Source: Candidatus Planktophila sp. (lineage in GTDB: Bacteria; Actinomycetota; Actinomycetes; Nanopelagicales; Nanopelagicaceae). From it: a DNA stretch of 64,000 bases. The stretch's first letter is position 1; the number at the start of each line of letters is the position of its first letter. The notes beneath the pieces were generated by a model. The model saw nothing but the letters and a program-made list of their open reading frames with translations. It made no database searches and was not told the origin of the DNA. The position numbers and the translations under genes were made by a program. The stretch lies in the NCBI GenBank assembly GCA_030649935.1, contig JAUSFN010000026.1, positions 1 through 64,000 on the forward strand. The letters run 5' to 3'. Positions 3,967 to 30,707 of this stretch are shown piece by piece.

Positions 3967-4085
3967 TTCTCCGCAACCTACTTGCCAGTATTTTAGGGCT
4001 CGAAAGACCATAGCGCCTAATAATTTCAATTTTTCCCCGTTAGCGAATTGAGTAATTAACTCAATTCATGGCCTCACAAGAAGAA

Positions 4086-4116
4086 AAGCCCCCGGTGGGA
4101 AAGGCACCGAGGGCTT
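4086..4116 (-). terminator. Rho-independent terminator-like hairpin, T-rich tract on minus strand
   Basis: aagcccccggtg-ggaaagg-caccgagggctt: 12-bp stem with one mismatch, 7-nt loop; minus-strand downstream sequence TTTTCTTCTTG; lies 7 nt from the 3' end of the tRNA fragment at 4123. Confidence 0.7.
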
Positions 4117-4119
4117 AAC

Positions 4120-4168
4120 TTGTGCGCGCGGAGGGGTTCGAACTGCCAACCCTCACGCCCGAAGACAA
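4120..4168 (-). repeat. tRNA-Arg(UCG) 3'-end fragment (degenerate beyond the T-arm), candidate distal attachment site
   Basis: 24-bp perfect match ttgtgcgcgcggaggggttcgaac (4120-4143) to 5617-5640 at the 3' end of the intact tRNA, followed by weaker similarity (gccaaccctcacgcccgaag vs cccaaccttctgatccgaag). Confidence 0.7.
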
Positions 4169-4435
4169 GGCACGCAGGAATCTCTAGTGTGCTGGAATCT
4201 GCTCAGTCAGTCACTGCAAAGTTAAGTCGTTTTTGCCGTCATATACAGTGTCATGAGATATGTGCAGCTTGTGACCCGCGTGTGACCCCGAGCAGGACTG
4301 CAAAACTGGCTCAGATCGAATGGGAACCTATTCCTCACACCTTAGAAGTCAACCAAGCCTGAGGCAGACCCTTGCAAGACCATGAATTTGAGAGTAATTT
4401 GACATGTATTAGGGGTGAATTGAGGAGTACCCACT

Positions 4436-5467
4436 ATGGCGGTACTGGCGAGAAAGTATCGAACGATCATTATTGTCACTGCGCTTATTGCGTTGGCAAG
4501 TCCATCAATGATTTTGAGTGCATCAGCTGTCCCAACGTACCGCTCTGGTCATCCACCGGTTATCATCTCCGCGGTTATTGATTCGCAGCGAAGACTTGAA
4601 GTTGTGTACAGGGCCGACGATGGTCTTACCTATGGCGGAAAGGTTTATTTTGATAATAACCCTTTGAACGCTGAGCCCCCCGCTTATGTAGACACTAAGT
4701 ACGGGAATTTTATGTACTGTAATAACAAATCTAACTGTTTGGCCCGATGGTCATTACCAGTTACGCCGGATGTTGGACCCTTTACATTTCTCTCTGAGCC
4801 ACTAGATCCAATCAGATTTCCTAACGGAACGTATTATGTACAGATTGAGAGCTTCAATGAGGACCCCTTCCCAAGTACGCGATACTGGGAAAATTCGGCC
4901 GTCTCCGTTGTGCTTCTCACCACTGTCTCAAGTTCTGCATCCATAAGTGTCGAGAAACTCGACGCGTTGAAGTTGCCCATCGATAACGGATCAGAACGAT
5001 GCTCTCAACTTCGCCAACGACTAACTCTTGGAAATCGCCTTGCTACTGCCATAAATGCGAATGTCAAAAGGTGGAACACTGCCCTTGAAAAAGTAAAAAA
5101 TCCGCCGGCAAATCTCAAAGCTGGATTAGAAGCGATATCGGAATGGATTGTTGGAGTTTCGGCTTTGCGAGAAAAGGATAGAGCGGATGCTGATGCAGTT
5201 TGTGGAACCGCTCCAGAATTAGTCGGATTGAATGGAAACTTCACCCCGATACCCGTACCTCCATCAAATGGTAAGTCGGCCTGCACGAAAATTCGAAACC
5301 AGTTGAATTATCTCAATCAAGAGTTACAGAAGGTCGTTGGCAACATTACTATGACGAATCTGAACCAAGTGGTGCGTATCAGGCAATTAAGGACTCGATT
5401 TGGACAATTATCTACGAGTTTGGTGCAGGCTTGGCCGACCGCTCTTAAGGCGTGTGCTCCTATTTGA
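4436..5467 (+). CDS. Secreted protein of unknown function
   Basis: 343-aa ORF with N-terminal signal peptide (MAVLARKYRTIIIVTALIALASPSMILSASA); GAGGAG upstream; no family recognised. Confidence 0.7.
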   Translation: MAVLARKYRTIIIVTALIALASPSMILSASAVPTYRSGHPPVIISAVIDSQRRLEVVYRADDGLTYGGKVYFDNNPLNAEPPAYVDTKYGNFMYCNNKSNCLARWSLPVTPDVGPFTFLSEPLDPIRFPNGTYYVQIESFNEDPFPSTRYWENSAVSVVLLTTVSSSASISVEKLDALKLPIDNGSERCSQLRQRLTLGNRLATAINANVKRWNTALEKVKNPPANLKAGLEAISEWIVGVSALREKDRADADAVCGTAPELVGLNGNFTPIPVPPSNGKSACTKIRNQLNYLNQELQKVVGNITMTNLNQVVRIRQLRTRFGQLSTSLVQAWPTALKACAPI

Positions 5468-5619
5468 TATTCAAGTCTCTTCAAAGTGTTTTAATAGTTG
5501 CAAGGCGGCTGAAGTACTTGAATTAGTTGGCGCGCGTGTAAAACTCCACCCTTGGAAAAGTTCGCCGAAGTTGTTGCAACGACCGGCTGAAACCAAGTCC
5601 GGAGTAATACAACACATTG

Positions 5620-5692
5620 TGCGCGCGGAGGGGTTCGAACCCCCAACCTTCTGATCCGAAGTCAGATGCTCTATCCGTTGAGCTACGCGCGC
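5620..5692 (-). tRNA. tRNA-Arg (anticodon UCG)
   Basis: Minus strand GCGCGCGTAGCTCAACGGATAGAGCATCTGACTTCGGATCAGAAGGTTGGGGGTTCGAACCCCTCCGCGCGCA; full cloverleaf, anticodon loop CTTCGGA. Confidence 0.95.
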
Positions 5693-5960
5693 TGGGTTGC
5701 TAAGAATACACATTGTTGGAACTCAGGCGTTATGTTTATGTGCCAGTTCAATCGCTTCGCGAAATGGATCGAATGCACCCGAATGAAGGGTTCCTCCCAT
5801 AACCCAATCAAAAAACGTCCTGAACCAATTGCCATTAACCCTGCTTCGCAGGACGAGTTTTTTGTGATGGTTGTACCTTCGGGCTCACTATGGATAGAAT
5901 CATTGAACTTAGTTCAACAAGTTTTTGTCCTTGACCCATTTCCTTATAAACGGAGGTCCG

Positions 5961-7055
5961 ATGGATCAATCCGATTCCGTCGTTCAACTGCTCGATAGTA
6001 ATGGCTCATTCACCAACGATTCACTTTTCACCTCCACATTAAAAGAATCAGAGTTAATTGATTTTTACCGAGACATGGTTTTAGTTCGTGCCATCGATGA
6101 GCAAGCGACTGCTTTACAGCGGCAAGGTGAACTTGGTTTGTGGGCGCCTTTACTTGGGCAAGAGGCGGCGCAAATTGGTTCTGCCCGCGCTATGAAAAAA
6201 CAGGATTTTGCTTTTTCAACATATCGTGAACATGGAGTTGCATGGTGCCGTGGTGTAGATCCAGTTGACATGCTTAGTTTTTGGCGGGGAACAAAGCATC
6301 AAGGATGGGATGCAAATCAATATCGGTCTTATGGTTACCAAATTATTATTGGCGCCCACGCATTACATGCAACTGGTTATGCCATGGGAGCTTACCTCTC
6401 CAGGAACACTGAAACAGGCGATGCAGGAATAGATCAAGCTGTAATGGCCTACTTTGGTGATGGCGCCATGAGTGAAGGCGATGTAAATGAGGCATTTGTC
6501 TTTGCCGCTTCTTACCAAGCTCCGGTTGTATTTTTCTGTCAAAATAATCAGTGGGCAATCTCTGAACCAACAAAGCGTCAAAGTCGAGTGCCCCTTGCAT
6601 ACCGTGCCGCAGGTTTCGGAATTCCTGGCATACGAGTAGATGGAAACGATGTCATTGCTTGCTATGAAGTTACTCGGCAGGCATTAGATCGTGCACGTTC
6701 AGGCCAAGGTCCGACTTTAATTGAAGCAATTACTTATCGAATGGGCGCACATACAACATCAGATGACCCCACCAAATATCAGGTTTTTAGCGAAGTTGAA
6801 CTTTGGAGAGATAGAGATCCAATCGAGAGATTAAAGGTCTACCTGCGCGCTAAGGGCGTTCTCAATAATGAGTTAGAGAGTGAAATATCTAATGAAGCTG
6901 CCACATTAAGCGAAAGGATGCGCGATGAGTGTCGAAAGCTTCCAGATCCAAATCCACTTTCGATGTTCGACCATGTTTATTCTGAGAGCGATCTGAATAT
7001 CGATGAGCAAAAGAGAGAAGTCGAAACAATTCTCTCTAGATCGCAGGATAATTAA
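5961..7055 (+). CDS. 2-oxoacid (branched-chain/pyruvate) dehydrogenase E1 component, alpha subunit
   Basis: TPP-binding GDGAMSEGDVNEAFVFAASYQAPVVFFCQNNQWAIS; ggagg upstream of ATG 5961 (ORF track start is 5925). Confidence 0.9.
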   Translation: MDQSDSVVQLLDSNGSFTNDSLFTSTLKESELIDFYRDMVLVRAIDEQATALQRQGELGLWAPLLGQEAAQIGSARAMKKQDFAFSTYREHGVAWCRGVDPVDMLSFWRGTKHQGWDANQYRSYGYQIIIGAHALHATGYAMGAYLSRNTETGDAGIDQAVMAYFGDGAMSEGDVNEAFVFAASYQAPVVFFCQNNQWAISEPTKRQSRVPLAYRAAGFGIPGIRVDGNDVIACYEVTRQALDRARSGQGPTLIEAITYRMGAHTTSDDPTKYQVFSEVELWRDRDPIERLKVYLRAKGVLNNELESEISNEAATLSERMRDECRKLPDPNPLSMFDHVYSESDLNIDEQKREVETILSRSQDN

Positions 7056-7056
7056 A

Positions 7057-8040
7057 ATGCCCCAACTCAGTATCGTTCATGCCCTTAATCAAGGTCTACA
7101 CCGCGCAATGGATGCTGATTCCAAGGTACTCCTCATGGGAGAAGACATTGGCAAGCTAGGCGGGGTATTTCGAGTAACCGAAGGGCTTCAAAAATCTTTT
7201 GGGGACGAGCGCGTGATCGATTCTCCATTAGCTGAATCTGGAATTGTAGGTACGGCTATCGGCCTAGCGCTCTACGGATTTCGCCCCGTTGTCGAAATTC
7301 AATTTGATGGCTTTGTCTTCCCCGCTTTCGACCAGATCGTTGTTCAACTCGCCCGAATGCGCTTTCGCTCGGCCGGTGCATTGAGCCTTCCCATCACTAT
7401 AAGAATGCCTTATGGGGGTGGAATTGGCTCCGTTGAACATCACAGTGAATCTCCAGAAGGGTATTTTGCGGCAACCCCTGGATTAAGAGTTGTTACATGT
7501 TCTAATTCGCATGATGCTTACTGGATGATCCAACAATCTATTGCAAGTGATGACCCGGTTATTTTTCTAGAACCAAAAAGGCGATATTGGCAAAAGAGTG
7601 AGGTCAACACTGATTCACATCTCAACAATATATCGGCGTTGCATGAAGCAAGGGTTTTAACTGAAGGTTCAGATTGCACAATTATTGGTTACGGCCCGAC
7701 CATTGCGACATGTTTGCAATCTGCTCGGCTTGCAGCCGAAGATGGAGTCTCTCTTGAAGTAATTGATCTGCGCTCTTTAAGTCCAATAGACATGCCTGTG
7801 TTAATTAAATCTGCTAATAAAACTGGTCGCGTGGTCATAGTTCACGAGGCTTCTCGCAGCGGAGGAGTTGGAGCAGAAATAGCTACACGCCTGACCCAAG
7901 AGTGCTTTTATAAACTAGAAGCACCTGTGATGAGAGTGACGGGTTATGACGTTCCATATCCTCCGAGTCGAATAGAGGATGATTACTTGCCAGATGCCGA
8001 GAGAATTCTCGATGCAGTTGAAAAGTGCATGGGTTATTAA
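7057..8040 (+). CDS. 2-oxoacid dehydrogenase E1 component, beta subunit
   Basis: ORF in operon after E1 alpha; GEDIGKLGGVFRVTEGLQ, PLAESGIVGTAIGLALYGFRPVVEIQF typical of E1 beta. Confidence 0.9.
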   Translation: MPQLSIVHALNQGLHRAMDADSKVLLMGEDIGKLGGVFRVTEGLQKSFGDERVIDSPLAESGIVGTAIGLALYGFRPVVEIQFDGFVFPAFDQIVVQLARMRFRSAGALSLPITIRMPYGGGIGSVEHHSESPEGYFAATPGLRVVTCSNSHDAYWMIQQSIASDDPVIFLEPKRRYWQKSEVNTDSHLNNISALHEARVLTEGSDCTIIGYGPTIATCLQSARLAAEDGVSLEVIDLRSLSPIDMPVLIKSANKTGRVVIVHEASRSGGVGAEIATRLTQECFYKLEAPVMRVTGYDVPYPPSRIEDDYLPDAERILDAVEKCMGY

Positions 8041-8044
8041 GATT

Positions 8045-9400
8045 ATGGAAACCTCTGGTTCAGAATTTGAGTTTCGACTTCCTGATGTGGGTGAAGGACT
8101 AGAAGATGCCGAAATTATTGAATGGAAAGTATCTGCTGGAGAAAGAATTCAGGTCAATCAACTAATTGTTGAGATCGAAACAGCTAAAGCTTTGGTTGAA
8201 CTTCCAACTCCTTTTGCCGGCACGGTGCTTGAACTTCTGGTCCACGAGGGCCAAGTTGTTCATGTAGGAACGCCCATCATTCGCATCTTGATAGAGGCGG
8301 AAAAGACGTCTGTCGCACCAACCACCGAGTTGAAATCTGAGCGCACCGAAATCTTGGTTGGTTCTGGACCTCGAAATGAGGAAACCTCGCACCGGAAACG
8401 TGCTACTCGAAACTATGGAACCAGAGTAGGTGCAGTTCGCTCCGATGCTCCAAAACCTCAGATGCCAAAACCTCCGATACTTAGTGTGCCTGAACCACGA
8501 TTTGAAGCTCCAGCTTCAATAAATAGCCGAATAATTGCTTTAGCAAAACCTCCTGTGCGCAGACTTGCTAGAGATTGTGGAGTGGATTTACTCTCCTTAA
8601 CAGGCAGTGGTCCCGAAGGTTCAATTACACATGAAGATGTTTTGGCCGCTGCCAACCGATTAAAAAATGAGACTAATCCAAAAAATAATAGCGTTGATGA
8701 ATTTAGAGAAACTCGCACTCCAATTCACGGAGTCCGACGTGTTATGGCTGAAGCAACGGTCGCTAGCGCCTTTACCGCACCTCACGTAACCGAATTCGTT
8801 ACAGTTGATGTGACTAGTGCGATTGAATTGTTAGATCGACTTCGAGCCCTACCTGAGTTTTCTGGAGTTCGACTCTCCATCTTGTCACTGCTGGCACGGG
8901 CAATGTGTATTGCAATGCCCAATACCCCTGAGGTAAACAGTTTTTGGGATGTGCAATCACAAGAGGTAGTTACTAAACACTACATCAATCTCGGCGTTGC
9001 AACTGCAACCGATCGCGGATTATTAGTGCCCAACGTTAAAAACGCAGAACAATTAAATTTTAAGAATCTTGCAAAGGCAATAGAAGAAGTGGTTGACGCT
9101 GCTCGTACAAAGAAAGCATCGTTAAGCCAGTTAACAGGTGGCACTATGTCTATTACTAATATCGGCGTCTTTGGAGTTGAAACTGGAACTCCAATCTTGC
9201 CACCTGGTGAATCGGCGATAGTCTGCTTAGGTGCAATCGTCACACGGCCTTGGGTTGTTGATTCTGAGATTGTAGCGCGGCACGTATGCACACTCTCTTT
9301 ATCATTTGATCATCGCTTAGTTGATGGGGCGCAAGGTTCAAAATTTTTAACCGACATCGCAAAATTATTACAAGAGCCTTCAGAACTTATTGCGCCTTAA
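8045..9400 (+). CDS. Dihydrolipoamide acyltransferase (E2)
   Basis: N-terminal lipoyl domain (VEIETAKALVELPTPFAGTV), E3/E1-binding domain (PPVRRLARDCGVDL), catalytic SLSFDHRLVDGAQGSKFL. Confidence 0.9.
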   Translation: METSGSEFEFRLPDVGEGLEDAEIIEWKVSAGERIQVNQLIVEIETAKALVELPTPFAGTVLELLVHEGQVVHVGTPIIRILIEAEKTSVAPTTELKSERTEILVGSGPRNEETSHRKRATRNYGTRVGAVRSDAPKPQMPKPPILSVPEPRFEAPASINSRIIALAKPPVRRLARDCGVDLLSLTGSGPEGSITHEDVLAAANRLKNETNPKNNSVDEFRETRTPIHGVRRVMAEATVASAFTAPHVTEFVTVDVTSAIELLDRLRALPEFSGVRLSILSLLARAMCIAMPNTPEVNSFWDVQSQEVVTKHYINLGVATATDRGLLVPNVKNAEQLNFKNLAKAIEEVVDAARTKKASLSQLTGGTMSITNIGVFGVETGTPILPPGESAIVCLGAIVTRPWVVDSEIVARHVCTLSLSFDHRLVDGAQGSKFLTDIAKLLQEPSELIAP

Positions 9401-9411
9401 TTGAAATCGTT

Positions 9412-10170
9412 TTAGTGACCAAGCCATTTGGGCACTCTTTTCTCTTTAAATGCTCGTGGTCCCTCTTGGGCATCCGCACTTTTATAAACCGGTTCCCAAA
9501 TTTCATTGGCCCGTATGCGTCCAGCTCCAAGAGTTGATTCGATAGTATTTCGAACCATAGCTTTACCTGCGGCTACAGAAAGCGGGGCATTGGCGGCGAT
9601 TTGAACTGCCATATCTCGAGCAGTTTCCATAAGAGCCTTTGAGGCAACCACTTTATTAACCAAACCTATTTCCAGAGCCCTTGAGGCCGAAATTGGCTGG
9701 GCAGTTAGGAGAAGTTCCAGTGCAACTCGTGGTGCAATTAATAAGGGTAAATGTGCTGCCCAAGGTGCGCCTCGCCCATGTCTTGCCTCTGTAATTCCAA
9801 AAGTGGCATGCTCGGCAGCAATAACCAAGTCGGCCTGCTGAACTAAATAAAAACCTCCACCAAATGCCAGACCGTTTACCGCTGCAATAACAGGTTTTGG
9901 AGTTTTTAAATCGGAGATGAAATCATCCTCAGGAACTTCAAGTCGCTGCTCAGACATTTCTTTTAAATCCGCCCCTGCACTAAAAGCAATATCTCCAGCC
10001 CCAGTAATTATTAAAACTCTAGCATTCTCATCATGAGTAAAGAGTTCAAGGGATTCTCGAATTCCGTTTCGTACTGCTGCGTTGAGGGCATTGCGAGCTT
10101 CAGCTCTGTTTATTGTTATCGTCGCAATTGAATCGGAGACTTCATAAAGAAGTTGGCTATTAGAAGTCAT
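9412..10170 (-). CDS. Enoyl-CoA hydratase/isomerase family (likely methylglutaconyl-CoA hydratase by context)
   Basis: NRAEARNALNAAV, AFSAGADLKEM, AVNGLAFGGGFYLVQQADLVIA crotonase motifs. Confidence 0.85.
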   Translation of the reverse strand: MTSNSQLLYEVSDSIATITINRAEARNALNAAVRNGIRESLELFTHDENARVLIITGAGDIAFSAGADLKEMSEQRLEVPEDDFISDLKTPKPVIAAVNGLAFGGGFYLVQQADLVIAAEHATFGITEARHGRGAPWAAHLPLLIAPRVALELLLTAQPISASRALEIGLVNKVVASKALMETARDMAVQIAANAPLSVAAGKAMVRNTIESTLGAGRIRANEIWEPVYKSADAQEGPRAFKEKRVPKWLGH

Positions 10171-20716: not shown

Positions 20717-21039
20717 CTCATGAAAATTTAATAATTGATTACTTGGTTCTAAATTCCTGGTCTGACGCCGACAATACTTACGAACAGGAATAACGCTGTG
20801 TCTAGAACACCAATCATTAATAATACTTTTTGCAACTTACTTAGTTTTCTTGGGCCCGAATTTTCACCATAATAGGGTTTAACTGATTGTCCATCCAAAA
20901 TCAGAAATGATATCTGTTGAAATATTGATCGGAATTGCAAGTCTAAAAACTAATAAAACTACTCGCACTACTCGTCCTTAGTTCGGATAAGCTTTAAGCT
21001 GATGAAGTAGGCCAAAGTTGTAAATGAAGTGTGAATTTG

Positions 21040-21091
21040 TGCGCGCGAAGGGATTCGAACCCCCAACCTTCTGATCCGTAGATACGCGCGC
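21040..21091 (-). pseudogene. D-arm-less tRNA-Arg(ACG) remnant at the distal attachment site
   Basis: Minus strand GCGCGCGTA-T-CTACGGATCAGAAGGTTGGGGGTTCGAATCCCTTCGCGCGCA; compared with the intact gene it lacks GCTCAACGGATAGAGCATCTGA but keeps the 5' acceptor strand. Confidence 0.75.
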
Positions 21092-21177
21092 CGTGACAAA
21101 TACCCACTTAGAAGTGGTTTTCACGCTCTAATTGTACCAAGAGTTGTGTCATGTTGTTTCCATGTATTCCAGACTCG

Positions 21178-21197
21178 TAACTCACTGCGTTACTCAC
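21178..21197 (+). repeat. Left copy of a 20-bp subterminal repeat (candidate integrase/excisionase arm site)
   Basis: taactcactgcgttactcac; 18/20 identical to 28395-28414 (taactcaccgcgtaactcac), same orientation. Confidence 0.6.
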
Positions 21198-21269
21198 CAA
21201 CTGCTTATCACCTCCAGAAACTTCATAAACTAATTCTGCTCAGTTCAAGTAGCAGTCGAAGTAAATTAC

Positions 21270-23006
21270 CTATTTTGCATCATTATTAGCCTCATCCATT
21301 TCAACCAGTTGCATTAGATCTTTTAAAGAATTTGCAATGAAATCAAGTTTTCCCCACGCCTCTGTATATCCATCAAATTTTCCGACCGCGGCACTAGGGC
21401 TAAATATTGCCCCTCGTTTCTTTAACGCTTCAAGAATGCTAATCTCCCAATTCCTTGCAAGAAGCCCATCCATTGGTCCTCGTAAATCCTTTACTTCCCA
21501 ACCTCTATTCTGATGTAACTTCACACGCTTATTTGGAAAATTTGTGATTCCAATTTGATACAACTGCCATTCCGAATGTTCGAGGAAATAGAGCCACGCC
21601 TTCGAATTAGGATCAAAGCCAGAGGAAGCACAGGTTGGACATCCACTCGGTCGGGTTCTGATACTTACGGCCGATGTCCATTGATGATCTTCCGAGCATT
21701 TCCAAGCCATTTTCTTATCACTTCCAGCCATCAATTTAGTCGGATCCCAGCCATCGGCTTCGCTCGCAATTATGGGGTGAGTAGTCTTGAGGTCGTTGTA
21801 ACCGACCAAAATTTTGTCGTTACCGCAAATAGGACACCCCGCACTTTTTGACCGAGTTCGACTAGCAATTGACGATTCCCAAATATGCCCAAAATCGCAG
21901 ATCCACTCTGCTCTATTTCTTCCCCCGCCCCCGATAATGTTTCTTGGATCCCAACCATGTGCTTGTTGGGCGATTTTTGGAAAAAGCGTTTCAAGATCGT
22001 TGTAGCCAATTAATAATTCTTGATTGGCACAGATCGCACATCCATTGCCATGCCGAGTTTTACTATAGACACGGCTAGAAGTCACATGCCCAATGGGGCA
22101 TTCCCATCGCATCTTCTTTGTACTACCTGCGACAACGGTTTTTGGATCCCAGCCATGGGCATGAATAGCAATTTCTGGGTGGGTAGTTGCTAGGTCATTG
22201 AAACCAATTAAAACTTGTTGACCCGAACAAACAGGGCACCCACCACCTTTTGTTCTGTTGCCAATTGTGGCATCCCAGTGGTGTCCCAATGTGCAAAGCC
22301 ATGAAACCTTTTTCCCACTATGGGCTCTAAATTTTGTTAGATCCCAGCCATGGGCTTCTTTTGCTAACTCCGGATGGGTCGTCGCCAGATCGTTATAGCC
22401 CTGAAGTACGGTGAAATTTCCACAAGTGGGACAGCCATTTTTCATGCGAGTGCTCACCACCGCTTCCCAATGGTGGCCTTCCTTACAAATCCATTTCTTG
22501 CTTTTTATCGAGCCTAAGGTGACGGTAGATGGATCCCATTCGAATGCTTCTGCGGCCAATTCCGGCTTCAATGTTGCAAGATCATTGAAACCAATAAGAA
22601 CTCGACGACCAGAGCAAGTTGGACAACCTGAGCCCCTCGTCCTATTTCCAACTACTGCTAACCACTCATGACCTTTGTCGCACTTCCATTTCAGTTTGGC
22701 ATTGTTACTGGCTGAAATGAGCATTGGATTCCAACCAACAGCCTCTTTCGCCAAAGCAGGGAACAAATATCCAACCGACGAGCAAACAGGACAGGATGTG
22801 CGGGAACCCCTAACTCCAGTTCTATTTCTTACTTCAGCGATCCACTCATGTCCTACGGTACATTTCCAAGGGAGTTTTTTGGCACTTCCTACTGCAACTT
22901 TGGTTGGATCCCAACCGAATGCTTCTCTCGCCAACTCTGGATGTGTATCGGAAAGTACGCGTACCAAGGATCTTTTACTCCTCTCTTGCATCCGAAGGAT
23001 ATTCAA
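21270..23006 (-). CDS. Protein with seven tandem zinc-ribbon/treble-clef-like units and a GIY-YIG-like C-terminal domain
   Basis: Seven units of HPELA.EA.GWDP..........W.C..GH.W...V..RT...GCP.C; C-terminus AWLYFLEHSEWQLYQIGITNFPNKRVKLHQNRGWEV resembles the GIY-YIG core. Confidence 0.75.
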   Translation of the reverse strand: MNILRMQERSKRSLVRVLSDTHPELAREAFGWDPTKVAVGSAKKLPWKCTVGHEWIAEVRNRTGVRGSRTSCPVCSSVGYLFPALAKEAVGWNPMLISASNNAKLKWKCDKGHEWLAVVGNRTRGSGCPTCSGRRVLIGFNDLATLKPELAAEAFEWDPSTVTLGSIKSKKWICKEGHHWEAVVSTRMKNGCPTCGNFTVLQGYNDLATTHPELAKEAHGWDLTKFRAHSGKKVSWLCTLGHHWDATIGNRTKGGGCPVCSGQQVLIGFNDLATTHPEIAIHAHGWDPKTVVAGSTKKMRWECPIGHVTSSRVYSKTRHGNGCAICANQELLIGYNDLETLFPKIAQQAHGWDPRNIIGGGGRNRAEWICDFGHIWESSIASRTRSKSAGCPICGNDKILVGYNDLKTTHPIIASEADGWDPTKLMAGSDKKMAWKCSEDHQWTSAVSIRTRPSGCPTCASSGFDPNSKAWLYFLEHSEWQLYQIGITNFPNKRVKLHQNRGWEVKDLRGPMDGLLARNWEISILEALKKRGAIFSPSAAVGKFDGYTEAWGKLDFIANSLKDLMQLVEMDEANNDAK

Positions 23007-23025
23007 ATTAATTACATAAGTTTTA

Positions 23026-23706
23026 CTATCTCTTGGTAATAAATGCCAGGAATTCTTTACCCAATGAAGTCGTTACACTGCTTCGCAAACCACTTCCTGA
23101 CATCGTAACATTTAGAGACTCTATTGAGACTAATCCCGAATTTCGAAGAAGTCTTAAAAGTTGGTTTGAGAACTCCGATGTCCATTGGGGGAAAAGGATT
23201 TGAAGTAGAGATGAAATACCCCCCATCATAAAATCGGGCCATTCTTGATCAAGTTTTTCGAAGAAAAGTGGGGGATTATCAAGAAAATCTAGCAATTGGA
23301 TGTGAGATACCGTCAAATCAGAGACATATTGCATAAACATGTTCAGTTTGTCTGAATCCATAGAGGGTTGTATGGCGGCATTAAGAACGGCGTTCCCGAG
23401 AAGAGCAATTTTTTCTTTATCGTGTGTGCGGACGGCACTTTGAGTAGCAGAAGCGACGGCATCAAGGAATATTTCATTGCGGGAGAGATCATCAAGATTA
23501 AGATTGTCCACTTTATTCAATAAGTCTTCTACCCTTGCTGCCAATTCTTCCAGCCATGCGTCCCTTCTTTTCCCATAAGCAACACCCAGCATTTCCTGAA
23601 GGACAATTGAAAATGGTCCTCCTACGATTGGCACAACGCTTACCGCTGCAACTGCCAAAACCTCTGAAACTCCGCGCTTGCTATCCTTTTTCGGTAGTTT
23701 TTCCAC
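23026..23706 (-). CDS. Hypothetical protein (possible C-terminal winged-helix-like segment)
   Basis: 226-aa ORF from GTG at 23706; GVSEVLAVAAVSVVPIVGGPFSIVLQEMLG; no family named with confidence. Confidence 0.65.
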   Translation of the reverse strand: MEKLPKKDSKRGVSEVLAVAAVSVVPIVGGPFSIVLQEMLGVAYGKRRDAWLEELAARVEDLLNKVDNLNLDDLSRNEIFLDAVASATQSAVRTHDKEKIALLGNAVLNAAIQPSMDSDKLNMFMQYVSDLTVSHIQLLDFLDNPPLFFEKLDQEWPDFMMGGISSLLQILFPQWTSEFSNQLLRLLRNSGLVSIESLNVTMSGSGLRSSVTTSLGKEFLAFITKR

Positions 23707-23708
23707 AT

Positions 23709-23786
23709 TTATCTCACGATCGCAACAGGGTAATTTGGATAAGTAAATCCTAGGATAAATCCAAGATTAAATAGTCTTTTCCTCAT
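23709..23786 (-). CDS. Candidate 25-aa leader/upstream ORF
   Basis: MRKRLFNLGFILGFTYPNYPVAIVR* starts at the ATG of the duplicated leader and stops 2 nt before the GTG of 23706; below the ORF track cutoff. Confidence 0.3.
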   Translation of the reverse strand: MRKRLFNLGFILGFTYPNYPVAIVR

Positions 23787-23855
23787 CACAATAAACTACC
23801 CCTTATCACCTCCATAAACTCCACTTATTCAAATCCCCGACTTCGGATCTTGTCA
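23783..23855 (-). repeat. Duplicated 5' leader, copy A
   Basis: 73 bp aligning to 24922-25003 with 2 substitutions and one 9-bp indel; contains GGAGGTGATAAGGGG and a start codon on the minus strand. Confidence 0.8.
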
Positions 23856-23893
23856 TTCTTTACCACTTCAAACCCACCTTCTCGTTGGAATTA

Positions 23894-24925
23894 TTAATTT
23901 ATTTCGGAGAGAACTCTTTTAATGAACGCGTAGGCTGTCGATGCTAATCTGCCCGATTCACCAACTTCATCAAGGCGACTCTTTTTGAAGGCGTGTGCAC
24001 ATGTACTTTTTGCCTCATAGGAATAGTCTTTCACTCTGTCCAAAAGATCATCAAAATAGATGGAGTCGCTAAAGATTGGTCTTAGGACTCCGTATGAATC
24101 TTGAAGTACAGAACATGCGTACTCCATGGCAGCGGCTGTCTTAACTCCCTCAATAAATCCCGCATAACTATACAAATAGGAATTAAGTGTTGCTGAAAAT
24201 GACTTAAGAGTTCGTATTTCACTTTGCGTAAAACCACCATTGGCCATGTTCCGTGATGCTTCCATGGCTGCCTCATCATTTGCAATTGAATTCGCTTCCT
24301 CTAATTGCTTCTGACTGGCTTCAAATTGCTTCAGATTCTCTTCGGCTTGCTTTCGATTCTCTTCTTCGACTTTCTTCTTTTCTTCTAATTGCTGCTTCTC
24401 CAATGCTGCCCGCGCCGCTATGGCGATTAATTTCTCACTCGCGATTGTTGCCTCCTTCTCCGCCTGAACTACTGAAGCCTCGTATCTAATTTTTGCGGAA
24501 GGATCTATCTTCCATCTTAGAGCAGCACCTGAAGGCTCAAGCATCCCAATCAAAACCGTGATTAATAAAATTGCCCCGCCAATACTTAGTCCCCTTGACA
24601 TACCCTTTTTCAACTTATTGCTCTTCATTGTCAAATTTCGGACTACTCTATAAAAGCGGATTGCGGTGAGGGTCAGGCTGATGAGGACTAGAAATGTGCC
24701 TACTGCCTCAAGATTTGAAATCGGTTTAGCATCCTCAGTTGCAACATTATGAGTCGTAAAGGTAAATCCAAATACAAGCCCAGTAGCAAGAAGCCACCAA
24801 GGAGTTCGCTCAAGTCTCTTTAATAGTCTTTTTAGTGGGCCACTCTGCTCCGGTAAATTTTCATTTTCCGCTGCTGAATTGTTTTCCGCTGCTGAACTTC
24901 CGCCGAACATTTTGCTTTTGCTCAT
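23894..24925 (-). CDS. Membrane protein with two N-terminal TM segments and a long coiled coil
   Basis: WWLLATGLVFGFTF and GLSIGGAILLITVLIGML hydrophobic segments followed by KEATIASEKLIAIAARAALEKQQLEEKKKVEEENRKQAEENLKQFEASQKQLEEA. Confidence 0.7.
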   Translation of the reverse strand: MSKSKMFGGSSAAENNSAAENENLPEQSGPLKRLLKRLERTPWWLLATGLVFGFTFTTHNVATEDAKPISNLEAVGTFLVLISLTLTAIRFYRVVRNLTMKSNKLKKGMSRGLSIGGAILLITVLIGMLEPSGAALRWKIDPSAKIRYEASVVQAEKEATIASEKLIAIAARAALEKQQLEEKKKVEEENRKQAEENLKQFEASQKQLEEANSIANDEAAMEASRNMANGGFTQSEIRTLKSFSATLNSYLYSYAGFIEGVKTAAAMEYACSVLQDSYGVLRPIFSDSIYFDDLLDRVKDYSYEAKSTCAHAFKKSRLDEVGESGRLASTAYAFIKRVLSEIN

Positions 24926-25003
24926 CACAATAAAGTACCCCTTATCACCTCCATAAACTACAGAAACTCCACTTATTCAAATCCCCGACTTCGGGTCTTG
25001 TCA
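24922..25003 (-). repeat. Duplicated 5' leader, copy B
   Basis: See copy A; this copy abuts the start codon of the 23894-24925 gene. Confidence 0.8.
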
Positions 25004-25067
25004 CTGTAAGCGCAGAACTTTCCGAAGGCTTTATTGATTTTCGAAGGCATAGCGCCATACTTCTTGT

Positions 25068-25676
25068 ATGGCCAAACCGTACAATCTCACAGGAATCTCT
25101 TGGCATATAGATAATAATGTGCTGACCAAATCCAGCGCCGAAACCCTTAGAGGATTGTTTGAGCATGGATGGGTGTTGCTCACTATCTCCTCGATAATTG
25201 AAGTAGAGCATTTGGATGCCACAAGTAAACAGGATGCTGCCAGACTTGAAGAAAGTCGCGCTCCCTTCTTTACCTCTTTTGCCCCCCTTGTCCTAGATCA
25301 CTCGATTCTGGGCAAATCTGTTCTCGCAGCAGACATTGATGAAGAGAGAATAGTTAAAGTGCACAAGGCAATATGGCCTGCATCCAATTTGGAGTCCGAT
25401 CGTATGAGTCCAAATCGTAGGTCAATGGGGAGGTCGCGATTTAGAGATTCACTTATCGTGGCTCACGCAATAAGAGATATTGCCTCTGCACTAGTTACGG
25501 ATGATCTGAGGGTTCTTTCTGCTAATGAGAGAATTCGAATGGAATTCCCCAATTTCAAAGTAATTTCGATCAAGGCGGCAACCGACCTAGCCCTTGCGAG
25601 AGTAGAAAAGGTTAGAAGATTAGCGAAAGGTGATTCCAAATCTCGGAGTGGAACCAGACTTCCGGACTGGCCATAA
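25068..25676 (+). CDS. PIN-like domain protein (putative ribonuclease)
   Basis: ISWHIDNNVLTKSS, ISSIIEVEHLDA, GRSRFRDSLIVAHAIRDIASALVTDDLRVLS show spaced acidic residues typical of PIN folds. Confidence 0.6.
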   Translation: MAKPYNLTGISWHIDNNVLTKSSAETLRGLFEHGWVLLTISSIIEVEHLDATSKQDAARLEESRAPFFTSFAPLVLDHSILGKSVLAADIDEERIVKVHKAIWPASNLESDRMSPNRRSMGRSRFRDSLIVAHAIRDIASALVTDDLRVLSANERIRMEFPNFKVISIKAATDLALARVEKVRRLAKGDSKSRSGTRLPDWP

Positions 25677-25896
25677 TGCCAAAGATTCACTCCTTTAATC
25701 GTGGACCTGTAGTTACTTTTTCAGTGCTCAAATTCACCCATTTCTTCTAAATTCACCCACTCGTTGCAAAGCATTCCCAAACTTCTAAAAACTTTTTTCA
25801 TTGTATTTAATCGATCTAGGTTTCCATTCTCAGGTTCCGCCTTGAGGGAACTAGAAAATCCTGTCAAATACCTGCTATTCGCAGTATTCTTTAAAA

Positions 25897-26469
25897 ATGA
25901 ACATTCTCTACTTTAAGCGCAAGGTAGGTCTTATCGGCATCGTTGCAATTTTTGTGTCTCTCAACCTGATTTCGGTTGAATCTGCTTCTGCTGCGACCAA
26001 TTGTCGACAAGTAATGCGCGATTTGCAGGTGGAAGTTATCGGTGTAAAAGCAGATATTAATGCAGATGCTACAACAGAAGAAATAGCAAGAATTAGCAAA
26101 ATTATAGAGAACAGATCCATTGAGTATCCAGAATGCAAATCCGAATTCTTGGTCTGGTGGGAATGGAATCAAGATGCAAATCCTCTTACACCATTTCCAT
26201 TCGGGAAGTCAGACGATCCACGAGTTTATCCTTTAGGTCCAATAAGTTGGTGGTGGGATCTTATTTACATTGATCTGTTTGGGCGTAACATTTTATTGAT
26301 GTTCCTCTTTGGGTGGGAAATTTTTTTAGGGGGGATATGGTTCGCGGGTTTAATCCCTCTAATGCTTTTGAGTGCAATCATTCCTTCACTTGGAACACTT
26401 CTCTCGAGGCCGATGAGAGTCTTGCGCCGAAGAGAGAATAAGAACAAAGATGAGTTCCCAGAAAACTGA
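25897..26469 (+). CDS. Predicted membrane protein with signal sequence
   Basis: KVGLIGIVAIFVSLNLISVESASA signal; C-terminal hydrophobic segments ILLMFLFGWEIFLGGIWFAGLIPLMLLSAIIPSLG. Confidence 0.55.
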   Translation: MNILYFKRKVGLIGIVAIFVSLNLISVESASAATNCRQVMRDLQVEVIGVKADINADATTEEIARISKIIENRSIEYPECKSEFLVWWEWNQDANPLTPFPFGKSDDPRVYPLGPISWWWDLIYIDLFGRNILLMFLFGWEIFLGGIWFAGLIPLMLLSAIIPSLGTLLSRPMRVLRRRENKNKDEFPEN

Positions 26470-26767
26470 ATCCACTTCTATTGATCTCGTTGAATAAATA
26501 GATATTCCTGAGAACTCTGCAAAATTTGATCTTCTGAGGCGACCCATGGCAGGAACATTGCCTACGAATTTGATGCGATTATTTTGGCAAGTTTGATTTG
26601 GATTGTATAACATGCTTTTCCGTAAGAATTTGATTCAGGATTCGTGCCGGCTCATCGGTATTGCCCACCGCATCTGAATCTTTCTCGTCCATTGAACTTT
26701 CACCATAGACTTCATTTTTCTTCGCTTCAATAAACTACCCCCTATCGAGTCAAGAAACATCAGAAAA

Positions 26768-26794
26768 TGTAGAAACTGTAGAAACTGTAGAAAT
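26768..26794. repeat. 3 x 9-bp tandem repeat (tgtagaaac)
   Basis: tgtagaaac tgtagaaac tgtagaaat just beyond the 3' end of the integrase gene. Confidence 0.6.
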
Positions 26795-26811
26795 TCAACC
26801 AGCCTTCTCTT

Positions 26812-28029
26812 TCATGGACGGATGGTTGCTTTCCCTAATCGGGGTTTAATTCCGTAAGACTTAATGTGAGTTTCTAAGCCAAGTACAGCGCGATCAGATC
26901 CTGCCTGCACATGGCCAACATAAATGTCTTTGGTCATCTGGATACTCGCATGACCAAGCATGTCCTGTACATCATTGATTGCCACTCCAGCCTCAATCGC
27001 AAGAAAGCCTGCTGTATGGCGTAAATCATGAAGACGAATATGCCTAATTCCATCTCTTGAAAGAGCAAGGTTAAGACCTTTCCGAACATTGTTCGCCGCG
27101 TATGGCGTTCCATTCTTTGTGACAAACACATAGCCCTCCGGATTCCACTGGGATCCAAACGGCATTCGAATTTTTGCCTGCTCTCTACGATGCCGTTCAA
27201 AAAAGGCTTTGAAGTCATCGGTTAAGTGCAATTTGCGTTTTCGATTGCTTTTGGTGGATCCATTAACTCGCTCTGAAACCCAAGTACCGTCACCAACCAA
27301 AGTTGGTATGTGTGCCTCAGTCTGCGTAACCCACAAGGCTAGATTTTCAATGTCAATCTGTTCCCACTTCAGTGCAATAACCTCTCCAATTCGCATTCCC
27401 AAAAACACCATGCACCTAAATAATCCCTCGAGGTGAGAGTCTTTTAATGCAGTAAGTGCCTGACCCACTTCCTCTGTGGTGTAAGACTTCTGGACTGCGC
27501 TCTTTTCATCCTCTGGCTTTTTAACTGAACTTGATCGAGTGACCGGATTTTTGCCTATTAGGTCCTCTTCTACCGCGCTTTCAAGCATGTTGTGGAGAAT
27601 TGAACGAGCACGGCGGATTGTATTCGTACTCAGTTTCTGCGCTTTTAAACTATTTATCATCTCAAGTACATCCTGAGATCGAAGGGAGTTTAAGCGTTTA
27701 TTACCTAATAGTGGCAAAATATAATATTGGCACATCTGTTGATAATTGCTTAGGGAAGATGGTTTCAGGCCCCTGAGAGGCAATATATTCTTATACCAAT
27801 AATCAGAATATGCCTTAATCGTGGTTGTAGACGAGAGTGTTAGGTTATGTTGCTTTTTCATGATTTGCATCTCCAAAAGTTTCCGGCCTGCTTCAGCCTT
27901 TGTCTTCGCTGTTTTACGAACCACCTTCGGCTTTCCATTTGAATAGCGTCCTACGACCACTGCGACCATCCATCCGCCAGTTCTCTTGTTTGGGTAAACA
28001 GAACCTTCACCATTTGCTCTACGCGCCAT
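26812..28029 (-). CDS. Tyrosine recombinase/phage-type integrase
   Basis: N-terminal SAM-like region; catalytic GMRIGEVIALKWEQID ... RLHDLRHTAGFLAIEAGVAINDVQDMLGHASIQMTKDIYVGH (R..H-x-x-R..H..Y). Confidence 0.95.
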   Translation of the reverse strand: MARRANGEGSVYPNKRTGGWMVAVVVGRYSNGKPKVVRKTAKTKAEAGRKLLEMQIMKKQHNLTLSSTTTIKAYSDYWYKNILPLRGLKPSSLSNYQQMCQYYILPLLGNKRLNSLRSQDVLEMINSLKAQKLSTNTIRRARSILHNMLESAVEEDLIGKNPVTRSSSVKKPEDEKSAVQKSYTTEEVGQALTALKDSHLEGLFRCMVFLGMRIGEVIALKWEQIDIENLALWVTQTEAHIPTLVGDGTWVSERVNGSTKSNRKRKLHLTDDFKAFFERHRREQAKIRMPFGSQWNPEGYVFVTKNGTPYAANNVRKGLNLALSRDGIRHIRLHDLRHTAGFLAIEAGVAINDVQDMLGHASIQMTKDIYVGHVQAGSDRAVLGLETHIKSYGIKPRLGKATIRP

Positions 28030-28230
28030 CTAATGCCTCCTCAAGTCCGTTAGAAGTGTCTCTTTGGTTTGAGAGTCGATAAATTTCTGTAAAGCGGGTG
28101 CAGGAATTCGACGAAGTGAACCGATCTTCAGTGAACGAATTTGATTTGCTTTGACAAGGCGATACATAGATGACCTTGAAATTCCAAGTAGAGAACAAGC
28201 CTCTGGAATCGTATAAAGAAGTTTCGTCAT
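28030..28230 (-). CDS. Excisionase/HTH DNA-binding protein
   Basis: LYTIPEACSLLGISRSSMYRLVKANQIRSLKIGSLRRIPAPALQKFI, typical excisionase-family HTH; directly upstream of int. Confidence 0.85.
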   Translation of the reverse strand: MTKLLYTIPEACSLLGISRSSMYRLVKANQIRSLKIGSLRRIPAPALQKFIDSQTKETLLTDLRRH

Positions 28231-28394
28231 CGGCATCCACCTTCACCAAATTCAGATCTTGGTGTGAAGCACCGAAGATCAGCCTGACTCTTAGTGAGTC
28301 GTGCTGATATGAAATTATGAACATCAACCACGGTTGATTACAAGACGCGCCACGCATTACTCCACAAATATTTTTTGAGTTACTTTTGCTTTCA

Positions 28395-28414
28395 TAACTC
28401 ACCGCGTAACTCAC
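28395..28414 (+). repeat. Right copy of the 20-bp subterminal repeat
   Basis: taactcaccgcgtaactcac, 18/20 to 21178-21197. Confidence 0.6.
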
Positions 28415-28488
28415 TTGAATTGAATTTAAACCATGGTTTACAAGTAATAACTCATCGAAATATGAGGATTGGCGGGCATTTTGTCTGG

Positions 28489-28561
28489 TGCGCGCGAAGG
28501 GATTCGAACCCCCAACCTTCTGATCCGTAGTCAGATGCTCTATCCGTTGAGCTACGCGCGC
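28489..28561 (-). tRNA. tRNA-Arg (anticodon ACG)
   Basis: GCGCGCGTAGCTCAACGGATAGAGCATCTGACTACGGATCAGAAGGTTGGGGGTTCGAATCCCTTCGCGCGCA; full cloverleaf, loop CTACGGA. Confidence 0.95.
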
Positions 28562-28640
28562 TTATTTAGTTTTATTGAACCTGCGCATCCTACCTTCTTT
28601 TCAAGCCCTTCCAAAATGTGAAAACTAAGCGTAAATAATG

Positions 28641-28676
28641 CACAAAGGGCACTGGAATAATCCAGCGCCCTTTGTG
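28641..28676 (-). terminator. Terminator hairpin downstream of the nucleotidase gene
   Basis: cacaaagggc-a-ctgga-ataa-tccag-c-gccctttgtg, 10+5 bp stem, 13 nt past the gene's stop. Confidence 0.7.
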
Positions 28677-28688
28677 ATTGTTATTTAA

Positions 28689-30707
28689 TTAACCAACTTT
28701 TTTTACACGTCCATCAAGTACAGGAACTTGTGTAACTTTGCCGGCCGCCATATCTGCCTTTAACGCCTCTACAAATACATCAAGTAGTGCACCTTTGACT
28801 TTTGCTTTTGCAGGTGAGAACACATTCAGATATCCATCTCCACCATAAATGATGAAGTCAAGGGTTGTGAGTGTGTACTCAGTACTGTCTTTTGCAATCG
28901 GCGTTCCATCATTCTTCGTGACGGTAACAATGCGAGAACCGAGTGGCTTGGAAGCATCGAATGTGAACTTGAATCCAGAAATCTGTGGGAAACGTCCATC
29001 ACCTGGATAGTTTCCACCAACACCATTTTCAAGTGCCGCCCAGAGATTTGTTCCCGTTACAACCGTTGTCGCAACTTGGTTGCCAAATGGATAGACCGTA
29101 AGTGCATCCCCAAGTGTCACATCGAGTGGACCAGCACCTGTTCTGACGAGAGCGGTATTGGCTGGAATGTAAGTCTTTGCAGGGAATGTGTCACGGATTC
29201 CTCCACCGTTAGTGATTGCAAAATCCGTCTTGTACTTTGTACGGAGGAGATCTGCAATGTAATCACCCATTGGATTTTCGCCAGAGCGCTCTACTGCAGG
29301 AGTTCCACCTCGTGGGAATACTCCTGATACTGAACCAATTTTGACATCAAGTTTTCCAGTCAACTGATCCTTGTATTTCTTTACGAGTGCTGCGGCAGTT
29401 GCATCTTGTGTTGTAACGGTGCTAACTACTCCAGTATTAATTGTCGATGCGGCAGACTTCAATACATGCTGAAGAGAAGATCCGACGATTTTGCCATTCC
29501 TGATGCAGATTTGGCTACGTGTATATTCAACACCTGAATTACGGACCTGACCGAGAAGTACCGGTGCCTGCCCGCGAGCTGACGAAGGAATCAGAGTAGA
29601 GAAAGTTTGATGACTATGGCCACCATAAATAGCCGCAGCTCCTTTAATTTGAGCAGAAAGGCTATTGAATAAGCCTTTTGCAACGCCATCAGAATTCTCA
29701 GTCCATCCTTGGTGTATCACAACGACGACAATCTCAGCCCCTGCCTCCTTGGCATCGGCGATAGATTTATTGATTCCAACTACTCCCGGATCGATTTCAA
29801 TTGTTGCTTTTTTACCGGATGCATCGGTGTAATCAAGGTTTCCTGGAAATACTTGCTCAATAGTCTCTGGGGTGTTAGCTCCAACGACACCAATCTTGAA
29901 TCCGCCTCGGTTGATGATTGTGTAAGGCTTTGCAGCTTTTTCTCCCGACTTTAACGCCGCTAGAGATGCAGCTGGATAATTCGCCACAACCCATTGGAAA
30001 TCAGATGCACCTATGATTTTTTGTAGGTGAGTAAGGCTTCGATCGTGTTCATGGTTACCAAATGATGAAGCATCAACCTTCATCAGATTCATAGATTCAA
30101 TAGTTGGCAGCTCTTCAAATTCAGTTGAAATTGGTGGTGCAGCGCCGATGTTATCTCCTGATGCCACGGTAAATGTGGCGGCAGCTGCGGCTCGATCTGC
30201 GGCGAAGTTAGGTACAAAGAGTGAAGTGCCAAATGAATTCCCAGTCTCTATTGCGCCGTGAAAATCACTAAACTGCAAAATCTGCACTGATCTATTACTG
30301 GGTGAAGCAACAGTTGATAATTGAGCGGCAGTAAAACTTTGCTTAGATGTTCCAGGCTTTGAGAAGCCGTAGGCATTGATTGCCTGAACAGTGGGAGTTC
30401 CTGCAGGTTGTCCAACAACTACAGGCATTGTTACGACTGAGTGATTCTGAGCACGCACATAGACTGGACATGAGCCCGCGCCTGCAGATACAACATAACC
30501 ACTTACTTCTGGAGTTACATTTTTTGCAGTTGTCCACTTAACTAATACTCCGCGATCTCCGATATAAGAATTGACATTAGTTGGTGCACCAGGCAACGAA
30601 TAAACATTTGCCTGTGCAGTTGGAATTAATAGTGCAGTCAAGAGTGCGGTGGCTGTGGCAAGTGCGCCCCAGCCTGGGAATTTGCGTGATGTGAAGGTTT
30701 GTTTCAT
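28689..30707 (-). CDS. Secreted 5'-nucleotidase / 2',3'-cyclic phosphodiesterase family protein (UshA-like)
   Basis: Signal peptide; LQFSDFHGAIE, SFGNHEHDRS, YGGHSHQTF, ITNGGGIRDTFPAKTYIPANTALVRTGAGPLDVTLGDALTVYPFGN. Confidence 0.88.
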   Translation of the reverse strand: MKQTFTSRKFPGWGALATATALLTALLIPTAQANVYSLPGAPTNVNSYIGDRGVLVKWTTAKNVTPEVSGYVVSAGAGSCPVYVRAQNHSVVTMPVVVGQPAGTPTVQAINAYGFSKPGTSKQSFTAAQLSTVASPSNRSVQILQFSDFHGAIETGNSFGTSLFVPNFAADRAAAAATFTVASGDNIGAAPPISTEFEELPTIESMNLMKVDASSFGNHEHDRSLTHLQKIIGASDFQWVVANYPAASLAALKSGEKAAKPYTIINRGGFKIGVVGANTPETIEQVFPGNLDYTDASGKKATIEIDPGVVGINKSIADAKEAGAEIVVVVIHQGWTENSDGVAKGLFNSLSAQIKGAAAIYGGHSHQTFSTLIPSSARGQAPVLLGQVRNSGVEYTRSQICIRNGKIVGSSLQHVLKSAASTINTGVVSTVTTQDATAAALVKKYKDQLTGKLDVKIGSVSGVFPRGGTPAVERSGENPMGDYIADLLRTKYKTDFAITNGGGIRDTFPAKTYIPANTALVRTGAGPLDVTLGDALTVYPFGNQVATTVVTGTNLWAALENGVGGNYPGDGRFPQISGFKFTFDASKPLGSRIVTVTKNDGTPIAKDSTEYTLTTLDFIIYGGDGYLNVFSPAKAKVKGALLDVFVEALKADMAAGKVTQVPVLDGRVKKVG

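What the first reader, a model, noticed from the sequence alone, without database searches (positions are those of the whole stretch)
21039..28530. Small integrative element at tRNA-Arg(ACG) with exact 43-bp boundaries
The 43-bp direct repeat, a tyrosine integrase and an excisionase-like HTH next to the tRNA define a ~7.5-kb element. It carries no recognised replication, packaging or conjugation genes, so it is a satellite or defence-island-like cargo carrier.
Basis: partly seen in the sequence, partly recalled or inferred. Interest (0 to 1): 0.68.

Follow-up and report, generated by a model that had tools for sequence, protein, structure and literature searches.

The report
Small mobile island beside tRNA-Arg gene
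A 7.4-kb mobile DNA island has inserted itself into the end of a bacterium's only tRNA-Arg(ACG) gene, carrying its own integration enzymes and a zinc-finger-array nuclease of a kind that turns up again and again on otherwise unrelated islands in related bacteria; the island type is known, the recurring nuclease is the part worth testing.

Summary
An exact 43-bp repeat (21039-21081, 28488-28530) brackets 7,449 bp. The right copy is the 3' part of the intact tRNA-Arg(ACG), which is single-copy in this genome. Integrase and excisionase sit next to the restored tRNA. Related genomes carry the tRNA without the element, so it is a true integrative element. The same tRNA 3' end is a hotspot: 12 other same-genus genomes hold a second core copy flanking different DNA.

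The cargo is not a recognised defence system, satellite or conjugative module. Its best-defined gene encodes seven treble-clef zinc-finger (DUF4379) repeats plus a GIY-YIG/T5orf172-type nuclease domain. Relatives of this protein recur on at least five other repeat-bounded 6-8 kb islands at tRNA-Arg, -Leu, -Val and elsewhere, with divergent integrases. I read it as a DNA-targeting interference nuclease; that function is inferred, not shown. Similar tRNA direct-repeat islands are already described in streamlined aquatic bacteria, so this is a new member of a known kind. The recurrent nuclease cargo is the interesting lead. "Satellite" is not supported; "defence-like cargo carrier" is plausible but unproven.

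The parts
21039..21081 (-). attL core: 43-bp copy of the tRNA-Arg(ACG) 3' part, chromosome-side junction
   Evidence: exact repeat of 28488-28530; with the next 10 nt it scores as a mini-tRNA, 21040-21091
21175..21197 (+). left arm-type site pair (TCGTAACTCACTGCGTTACTCAC)
   Evidence: 20/23 identical to the right pair; 0 of 300 dinucleotide shuffles as good
21204..21231 (-). block B1, repeated intergenic sequence at the left end
   Evidence: 89% identical over 28 nt to block B3
21270..23006 (-). cargo 1: seven DUF4379 treble-clef repeats plus C-terminal GIY-YIG/T5orf172-type nuclease domain (578 aa)
   Evidence: PF14311 E=6e-72 with 7 stretches, GIY-YIG weak (15.5 bits, cut-off 22.6); PHROG_681 endonuclease 4e-50; conserved Y, GI-N, R, H, E, E-W in relatives; structure model pLDDT 84 matching phage T5orf172/treble-clef proteins
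23026..23706 (-). cargo 2: 226-aa protein of unknown function
   Evidence: PHROG_26838 E=1.5e-8; weak relatives in two actinobacterial genomes and one Pseudomonas phage
23776..23855 (-). block B2: repeated leader upstream of cargo 2
   Evidence: 86.5% identical to B3 over 89 columns, E=1.8e-26
23894..24928 (-). cargo 3: protein with hydrophobic N-terminal part and Glu/Lys-rich coiled-coil-like stretch (344 aa), unknown function
   Evidence: open frame; only composition-type matches in Pfam
24915..25003 (-). block B3: repeated leader ending at the start of cargo 3
   Evidence: not found in 100 other genomes of the genus
25068..25676 (+). cargo 4: PIN-like protein (202 aa), assignment by motif only
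   Evidence: D-x-N, E, RD...A, VTxD spacing partly conserved in a Streptomyces plasmid relative, 28-31%; no Pfam hit; single-sequence model useless
25897..26469 (+). cargo 5: small protein with signal/transmembrane-like segments (190 aa)
   Evidence: open frame; no family match
26715..26768 (-). block B4: diverged copy of the repeated block, next to the integrase stop
   Evidence: 71% to B2 over 48 nt
26812..28029 (-). tyrosine integrase (405 aa)
   Evidence: catalytic motifs present; nearest full-length relatives only about 25-34% identical
28030..28236 (-). excisionase-like helix-turn-helix protein (68 aa)
   Evidence: TIGR01764 50 bits vs cut-off 28.8; HTH_17 E=1e-12
28392..28414 (+). right arm-type site pair (TCATAACTCACCGCGTAACTCAC)
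28486..28561 (-). intact tRNA-Arg(ACG), integration target restored by the element; attR core 28488-28530

Best explanation
This is a self-integrating genomic island (about 7.45 kb). Its tyrosine integrase recombines a 43-bp attP core, identical to the 3' part of tRNA-Arg(ACG), with the chromosomal gene. Integration leaves a partial copy at the far end and rebuilds an intact tRNA next to int/xis. Paired arm-type sites inside both ends are the likely integrase/excisionase binding sites that set the direction of recombination. The island occupies one of several tRNA hotspots used by unrelated small islands in this bacterial family. Its main cargo, a treble-clef repeat array fused to a GIY-YIG-type nuclease, most likely binds and cuts incoming DNA (phage or competing element) and so gives the host a benefit that keeps the island. 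Shown by sequence: boundaries, target, recombination module, empty sites, and recurrence of the nuclease on other islands. Inferred: that excision occurs, that the nuclease is active, and that its target is invading DNA. How the island moves between cells is unknown; packaging by a helper phage or uptake of naked DNA are both possible.
For: Exact repeat, intact target tRNA, int, xis and arm sites. Empty sites: in G068 (L050) one 417-bp match (window 28488-28904) runs through the core and into the tRNA's other flank, and a 49-bp match adds six bases of left flank. About 20 other fetched genomes have a single full tRNA, and complete genomes G080 (occupied) and G150 (empty) form a clean pair for another insert at this site. 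In five occupied relatives the chromosome-type tRNA 3' flank lies beyond the distal partial copy, showing the direction of insertion. PF14311 occurs in only 18 of 296 family genomes; 8 of 19 of those stretches contain an element-type tyrosine integrase, against 0 of 18 control stretches of larger total length (Fisher p=0.002). Exact repeats bound other nuclease-bearing islands: L078 52 bp/6.3 kb tRNA-Arg, L134 54 bp/7.35 kb and L136 49 bp/7.9 kb tRNA-Leu(TAA), L133 32 bp/7.45 kb tRNA-Val(TAC), L131 21 bp/6.6 kb. The nuclease domain is conserved at 37-58% identity with invariant catalytic-type residues, and its model matches phage T5orf172/treble-clef proteins. A relative lies beside McrC.
Against: PADLOC recognises no defence gene. 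The window's own GIY-YIG match is below Pfam's cut-off, and the best PDB fold match is weak (E=0.42). The same domain type in phages is often annotated as homing or HNH endonuclease, so a purely selfish role is possible. No second genome carries this exact island, so transfer of this particular copy is not seen.
Confidence: 0.55

Rival explanations
1. Phage satellite: the island is induced by a helper phage, packaged in its particles, and the nuclease is its weapon against the helper.
For: Size range and tRNA integration fit. A related island class in three genera (L131/L139/L140) carries a weak match to a filamentous-phage replication protein (below cut-off), and HTH_36 proteins lie beside int in L134/L136. 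Tycheposons and PICMIs are treated as satellites in the literature (PMC11389934).
Against: The window island has no terminase, capsid, portal, replication or Stl-type gene by Pfam, PHROGs or NCBIfam. Scans of viral contigs found no relative of four of its proteins, though those scans reach close relatives only.
Confidence: 0.2
2. Purely selfish island: the treble-clef/GIY-YIG protein is a homing-type endonuclease that cuts empty sites or rival islands, with no host benefit.
For: Phage relatives are annotated as HNH/homing endonucleases. The protein sits at the end of the island next to attL, and different islands compete for the same tRNA.
Against: The relatives sit at several different tRNA targets yet keep similar nuclease domains, which does not suit a site-specific homing enzyme for a single attB. 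The repeat arrays vary from 3 to 9 units.
Confidence: 0.25
3. A decayed, immobile island: fixed remnant whose cargo has no present role.
For: No close relative of this exact island in 296 family genomes; GC similar to host; short ORF debris around 26470-26700.
Against: int, xis, both arm pairs and the 43-bp cores are intact and the cores identical; the cargo frames are open and the nuclease residues conserved.
Confidence: 0.12

Closest known systems
tRNA-direct-repeat cassettes of additive flexible genomic islands (Ca. Actinomarinales, PMC7771536; Ca. Methylopumilus fGI-2, PMC10872708)
   Different: The passages read there describe the repeats and cargo, not a dedicated int/xis/arm-site module or a recurrent treble-clef/GIY-YIG nuclease.
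Tycheposons (Prochlorococcus, Methylophilaceae)
   Same: Tyrosine recombinase next to a tRNA, cargo-carrying, in streamlined plankton.
   Different: Host phylum and tRNA differ; size here is 7.4 kb, near the low end of the 4-200 kb given in PMC10872708; kinship of the recombinases was not tested.
Phage satellites (PICI, PLE, PICMI)
   Same: Compact, tRNA-targeting or site-specific integration, int/xis, possible anti-phage nuclease.
   Different: None of the satellite packaging, capsid or replication genes was found in the window island.
Phage T5orf172/GIY-YIG free-standing endonucleases with zinc-finger repeats (PHROG_681, PHROG_559)
   Same: Domain make-up and predicted fold of cargo 1.
   Different: Here the gene is island cargo in bacterial chromosomes, with repeat arrays of up to nine units.

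Membership tests
tRNA-targeted integrative element / genomic island | integrase gene next to the intact tRNA | tested here: met
tRNA-targeted integrative element / genomic island | direct repeat of the tRNA 3' end at the far boundary | tested here: met
   43/43 identical
tRNA-targeted integrative element / genomic island | empty target site in relatives | tested here: met
   L050 and many single-copy sites; in the nearest species G116 the left flank is rearranged, so the join there is not exact
tRNA-targeted integrative element / genomic island | excision as a circle | not testable with these tools
   no reads available
Tycheposon | tyrosine recombinase plus tRNA boundary plus cargo | tested here: met
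   the definition used is that quoted in PMC10872708
Tycheposon | recombinase related to the Prochlorococcus tycheposon recombinases | not tested
   no reference sequence was compared
Phage satellite (PICI/PLE/PICMI) | capsid-remodelling, terminase, replication or Stl-type regulator genes | tested here: not met
   no such match in Pfam, PHROGs, NCBIfam
Integrative conjugative or mobilisable element | relaxase or conjugation genes | tested here: not met
   none in Pfam or NCBIfam; oriT not testable
Known anti-phage defence system | match to a PADLOC system | tested here: not met
   only low-complexity or HTH-level matches
GIY-YIG/T5orf172 nuclease (cargo 1) | profile match above curated cut-off | tested here: inconclusive
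   window protein below cut-off (15.5-18.8 of 22.6); relative L078 above the T5orf172 cut-off (20.8 of 20)
GIY-YIG/T5orf172 nuclease (cargo 1) | catalytic-type Tyr, Gly, Arg and Glu positions conserved | tested here: met
   invariant Y25, G38, R46, E73, E101 in 17 sequences
PIN-domain ribonuclease (cargo 4) | PIN profile or fold match | tested here: inconclusive
   no Pfam hit, unusable model, motif spacing only

The most novel reading that the evidence does not exclude
The treble-clef-array/GIY-YIG proteins are a so far undescribed, exchangeable interference nuclease that unrelated tRNA-targeting islands have acquired repeatedly, with the number and make-up of the roughly 65-residue zinc-finger units setting which DNA is cut.
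Probability: 0.13. Interest if true: 0.75.

Novelty: new member of a known kind. Interest (0 to 1): 0.42.

Why it matters
Small self-contained integrative elements show how bacteria with very small genomes still gain and lose genes. The recurrence of one unusual nuclease on islands with different integrases and different tRNA targets suggests a shared function, probably interference with foreign DNA, that can be tested directly. The hotspot itself (13 of 102 genomes counting this one, several island lineages) is a good natural system for gene exchange in this group.

Tried and rejected
Search for a close relative of the integrase in GTDB genome contigs, viral contigs, phages and 296 family genomes: only distant relatives, about 25-34% over the full length. 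Viral-contig scans with three cargo proteins: nothing. Structure of the PIN-like protein from a single sequence: unusable. PDB sequence searches for cargo 1 and 4: nothing meaningful. Foreign base composition: absent. I considered that the four repeated blocks (B1-B4) might be recombination sites for cargo cassettes. They are in the same orientation and lie between cargo modules, but B2 and B3 look like 5' leaders, and other islands have leaders of the same layout but different sequence, so I treat them as leaders or homology tracts rather than att sites. A first count of 9 of 19 nuclease loci with integrase included one locus outside the set; the corrected count is 8 of 19.
Full report
Observation. 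The 43-bp direct repeat is exact at 21039-21081 and 28488-28530. The right copy is the 3' part of an intact tRNA-Arg(ACG) at 28486-28561 on the minus strand. The core sequence occurs nowhere else in the 1.82-Mb genome, so the gene is single-copy and must be rebuilt by any insertion. The left copy is a fragment. With the following ATACGCGCGC it can be read as a tRNA lacking its D arm, and Rfam scores it just above threshold. The window begins at base 1 of a 277-kb contig, so no assembly break touches the element.

Recombination module. The 405-aa protein at 26812-28029 is a tyrosine integrase with the catalytic motifs present. The 68-aa protein at 28030-28236 scores 50 bits against the excisionase model, whose cut-off is 28.8. 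Each end carries two copies of a short sequence in tandem, RTAACTCAC/GTTACTCAC. Comparing the two ends gives TCrTAACTCACyGCGTwACTCAC at 20 of 23 positions, better than all 300 dinucleotide-shuffled comparisons. This is the layout expected of integrase or excisionase arm sites; that reading is inference from the lambda-type systems.

Empty sites. In genus relative G068 (93% in the neighbouring nucleotidase) one match runs from the core through the tRNA into the flank (window 28488-28904), and a second, 49-bp, match covers window 21033-21081, the core plus six bases of left flank. There is no element between them. In G116 (95%) the left-flank genes are collinear up to 20734, but 2.2 kb of unrelated DNA with a decayed tRNA fragment lies between them and the single tRNA, so the exact left join is lost there. 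Across the genus, the fetched single-core sites all show a full tRNA. In occupied relatives such as L062, L069, L070, L072 and L073 the normal chromosomal tRNA 3' flank (GGCACCGAGAGCTTAACTT and variants) sits beyond the distal partial copy, and a different, element-type sequence adjoins the intact tRNA. Complete genomes G080 (3.0-kb insert) and G150 (none) form a clean pair.

Hotspot. Of 102 same-genus genomes with the core, 13 including this one carry two or more copies on one contig, 0.65-7.6 kb apart. Several have other integrases: a compact 250-260 aa type (L069, L078, and in shortened form L070) and a 379-aa type (L075). Others carry none (L062, L072, L073 and more), and some of these share end sequences with the integrase-bearing ones, which suggests mobilisation in trans. 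The compact integrase is found in 11 of 135 genus genomes but not in the window's genome. The window's genome has only four tyrosine-recombinase genes in all.

Cargo. The largest cargo gene (21270-23006) encodes seven DUF4379 treble-clef repeats (PF14311, E=6e-72) and a C-terminal domain with a weak GIY-YIG match. PF14311 proteins occur in eight genera of the family. The C-terminal domains of 16 relatives are 37-58% identical to the window's, with invariant Y, G-I-N, R, H, E and E-W positions; 11 of 17 members match GIY-YIG and 5 match T5orf172. A model built from this alignment (pLDDT 84) matches phage treble-clef, CapR-domain and T5orf172 proteins; the PDB match is weak. I take it as a GIY-YIG-superfamily nuclease of the T5orf172 branch, with the caveat that activity is not shown. 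The other cargo is poorly understood: a 226-aa protein of PHROG_26838, a probable membrane/coiled-coil protein, a PIN-like protein identified by motif and one Streptomyces plasmid relative, and a small membrane-like protein. PADLOC finds no defence system.

Recurrence of the nuclease. PF14311 is rare in the family (18 of 296 genomes). Of 19 fetched stretches around it, 8 contain an element-type tyrosine integrase, against none of 18 control stretches of larger total length (209 kb versus 261 kb; p=0.002). The control stretches were chosen near tRNA-Arg and three are very short, so this is a rough comparison. Exact repeats bound five further islands with the gene: L078 (tRNA-Arg), L134 and L136 (tRNA-Leu), L133 (tRNA-Val) and L131. 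L131, L139 and L140 are collinear over 4.3 kb at 71-76% identity in three genera. L138 and L143, from two genera, share 1,618 bp at 99.75% with different sequence upstream: either very recent transfer or a misbinned contig. One relative is next to McrC.

Repeated blocks. B1-B4 lie at the boundaries of the cargo modules, all in one orientation; B2 and B3 are 86.5% identical over 89 columns and lead into the start regions of cargo 2 and 3. They are not found elsewhere in 100 genus genomes. Islands L062 and L078 also have 65-90-bp repeated leaders ahead of their cargo genes, of other sequence. Repeated leaders could serve co-regulation or cargo exchange by homologous recombination; I cannot decide which.

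Comparison with the known. tRNA-direct-repeat cassettes and additive islands are described in streamlined marine actinobacteria and freshwater methylotrophs (PMC7771536, PMC10872708), and tycheposons share the plan of tyrosine recombinase, tRNA and cargo. The element is therefore a new member of a known kind.

Verdict. The island is real and well delimited (about 0.95). Its most likely role, a carrier of a DNA-interference nuclease, stands at about 0.45-0.5; the combined statement is scored 0.55.

Noticed in passing
L062 (13446, 15582, 14455), L078 (3128, 4502), oriented coordinates: Cargo genes of other tRNA-Arg islands sit behind repeated 65-90-bp leaders; L062 and L078 leaders share a core close to CCCGGTTGTTAAAT. 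Several secreted cargo proteins share the C-terminal motif ITCTKGKVTKKVTAVxPKCPxGYKKK.
   Followed up: partly
L138:3114-4731 and L143:7410-9026: 1,618 bp 99.75% identical between two genera, including the DUF4379-GIY-YIG gene, with different sequence upstream: recent transfer or misbinning.
   Followed up: partly
window 21040-21091: Left att copy forms a D-arm-less mini-tRNA (Rfam 29.9 bits); could be an old tRNA copy with a roughly 22-nt deletion.
   Followed up: no
L049 16994-17025 (oriented): Decayed tRNA-Arg 3' fragment in relative G116, a likely scar of an older island at the same site.
   Followed up: partly
L075 (oriented 2264-9904): A 7.6-kb island at the same tRNA in G148 with a different integrase and, by eye, an ATPase/helicase-like gene; possible replicating satellite.
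   Followed up: no
window 28236-28487: Two perfect palindromes (ATCAACCACGGTTGAT, TAAACCATGGTTTA) upstream of xis, possible operators.
   Followed up: no
L130:3957-7360: McrC (PF10117, E=1e-53) directly beside a nine-repeat DUF4379 protein, near tRNA-Ser and tRNA-Arg.
   Followed up: no
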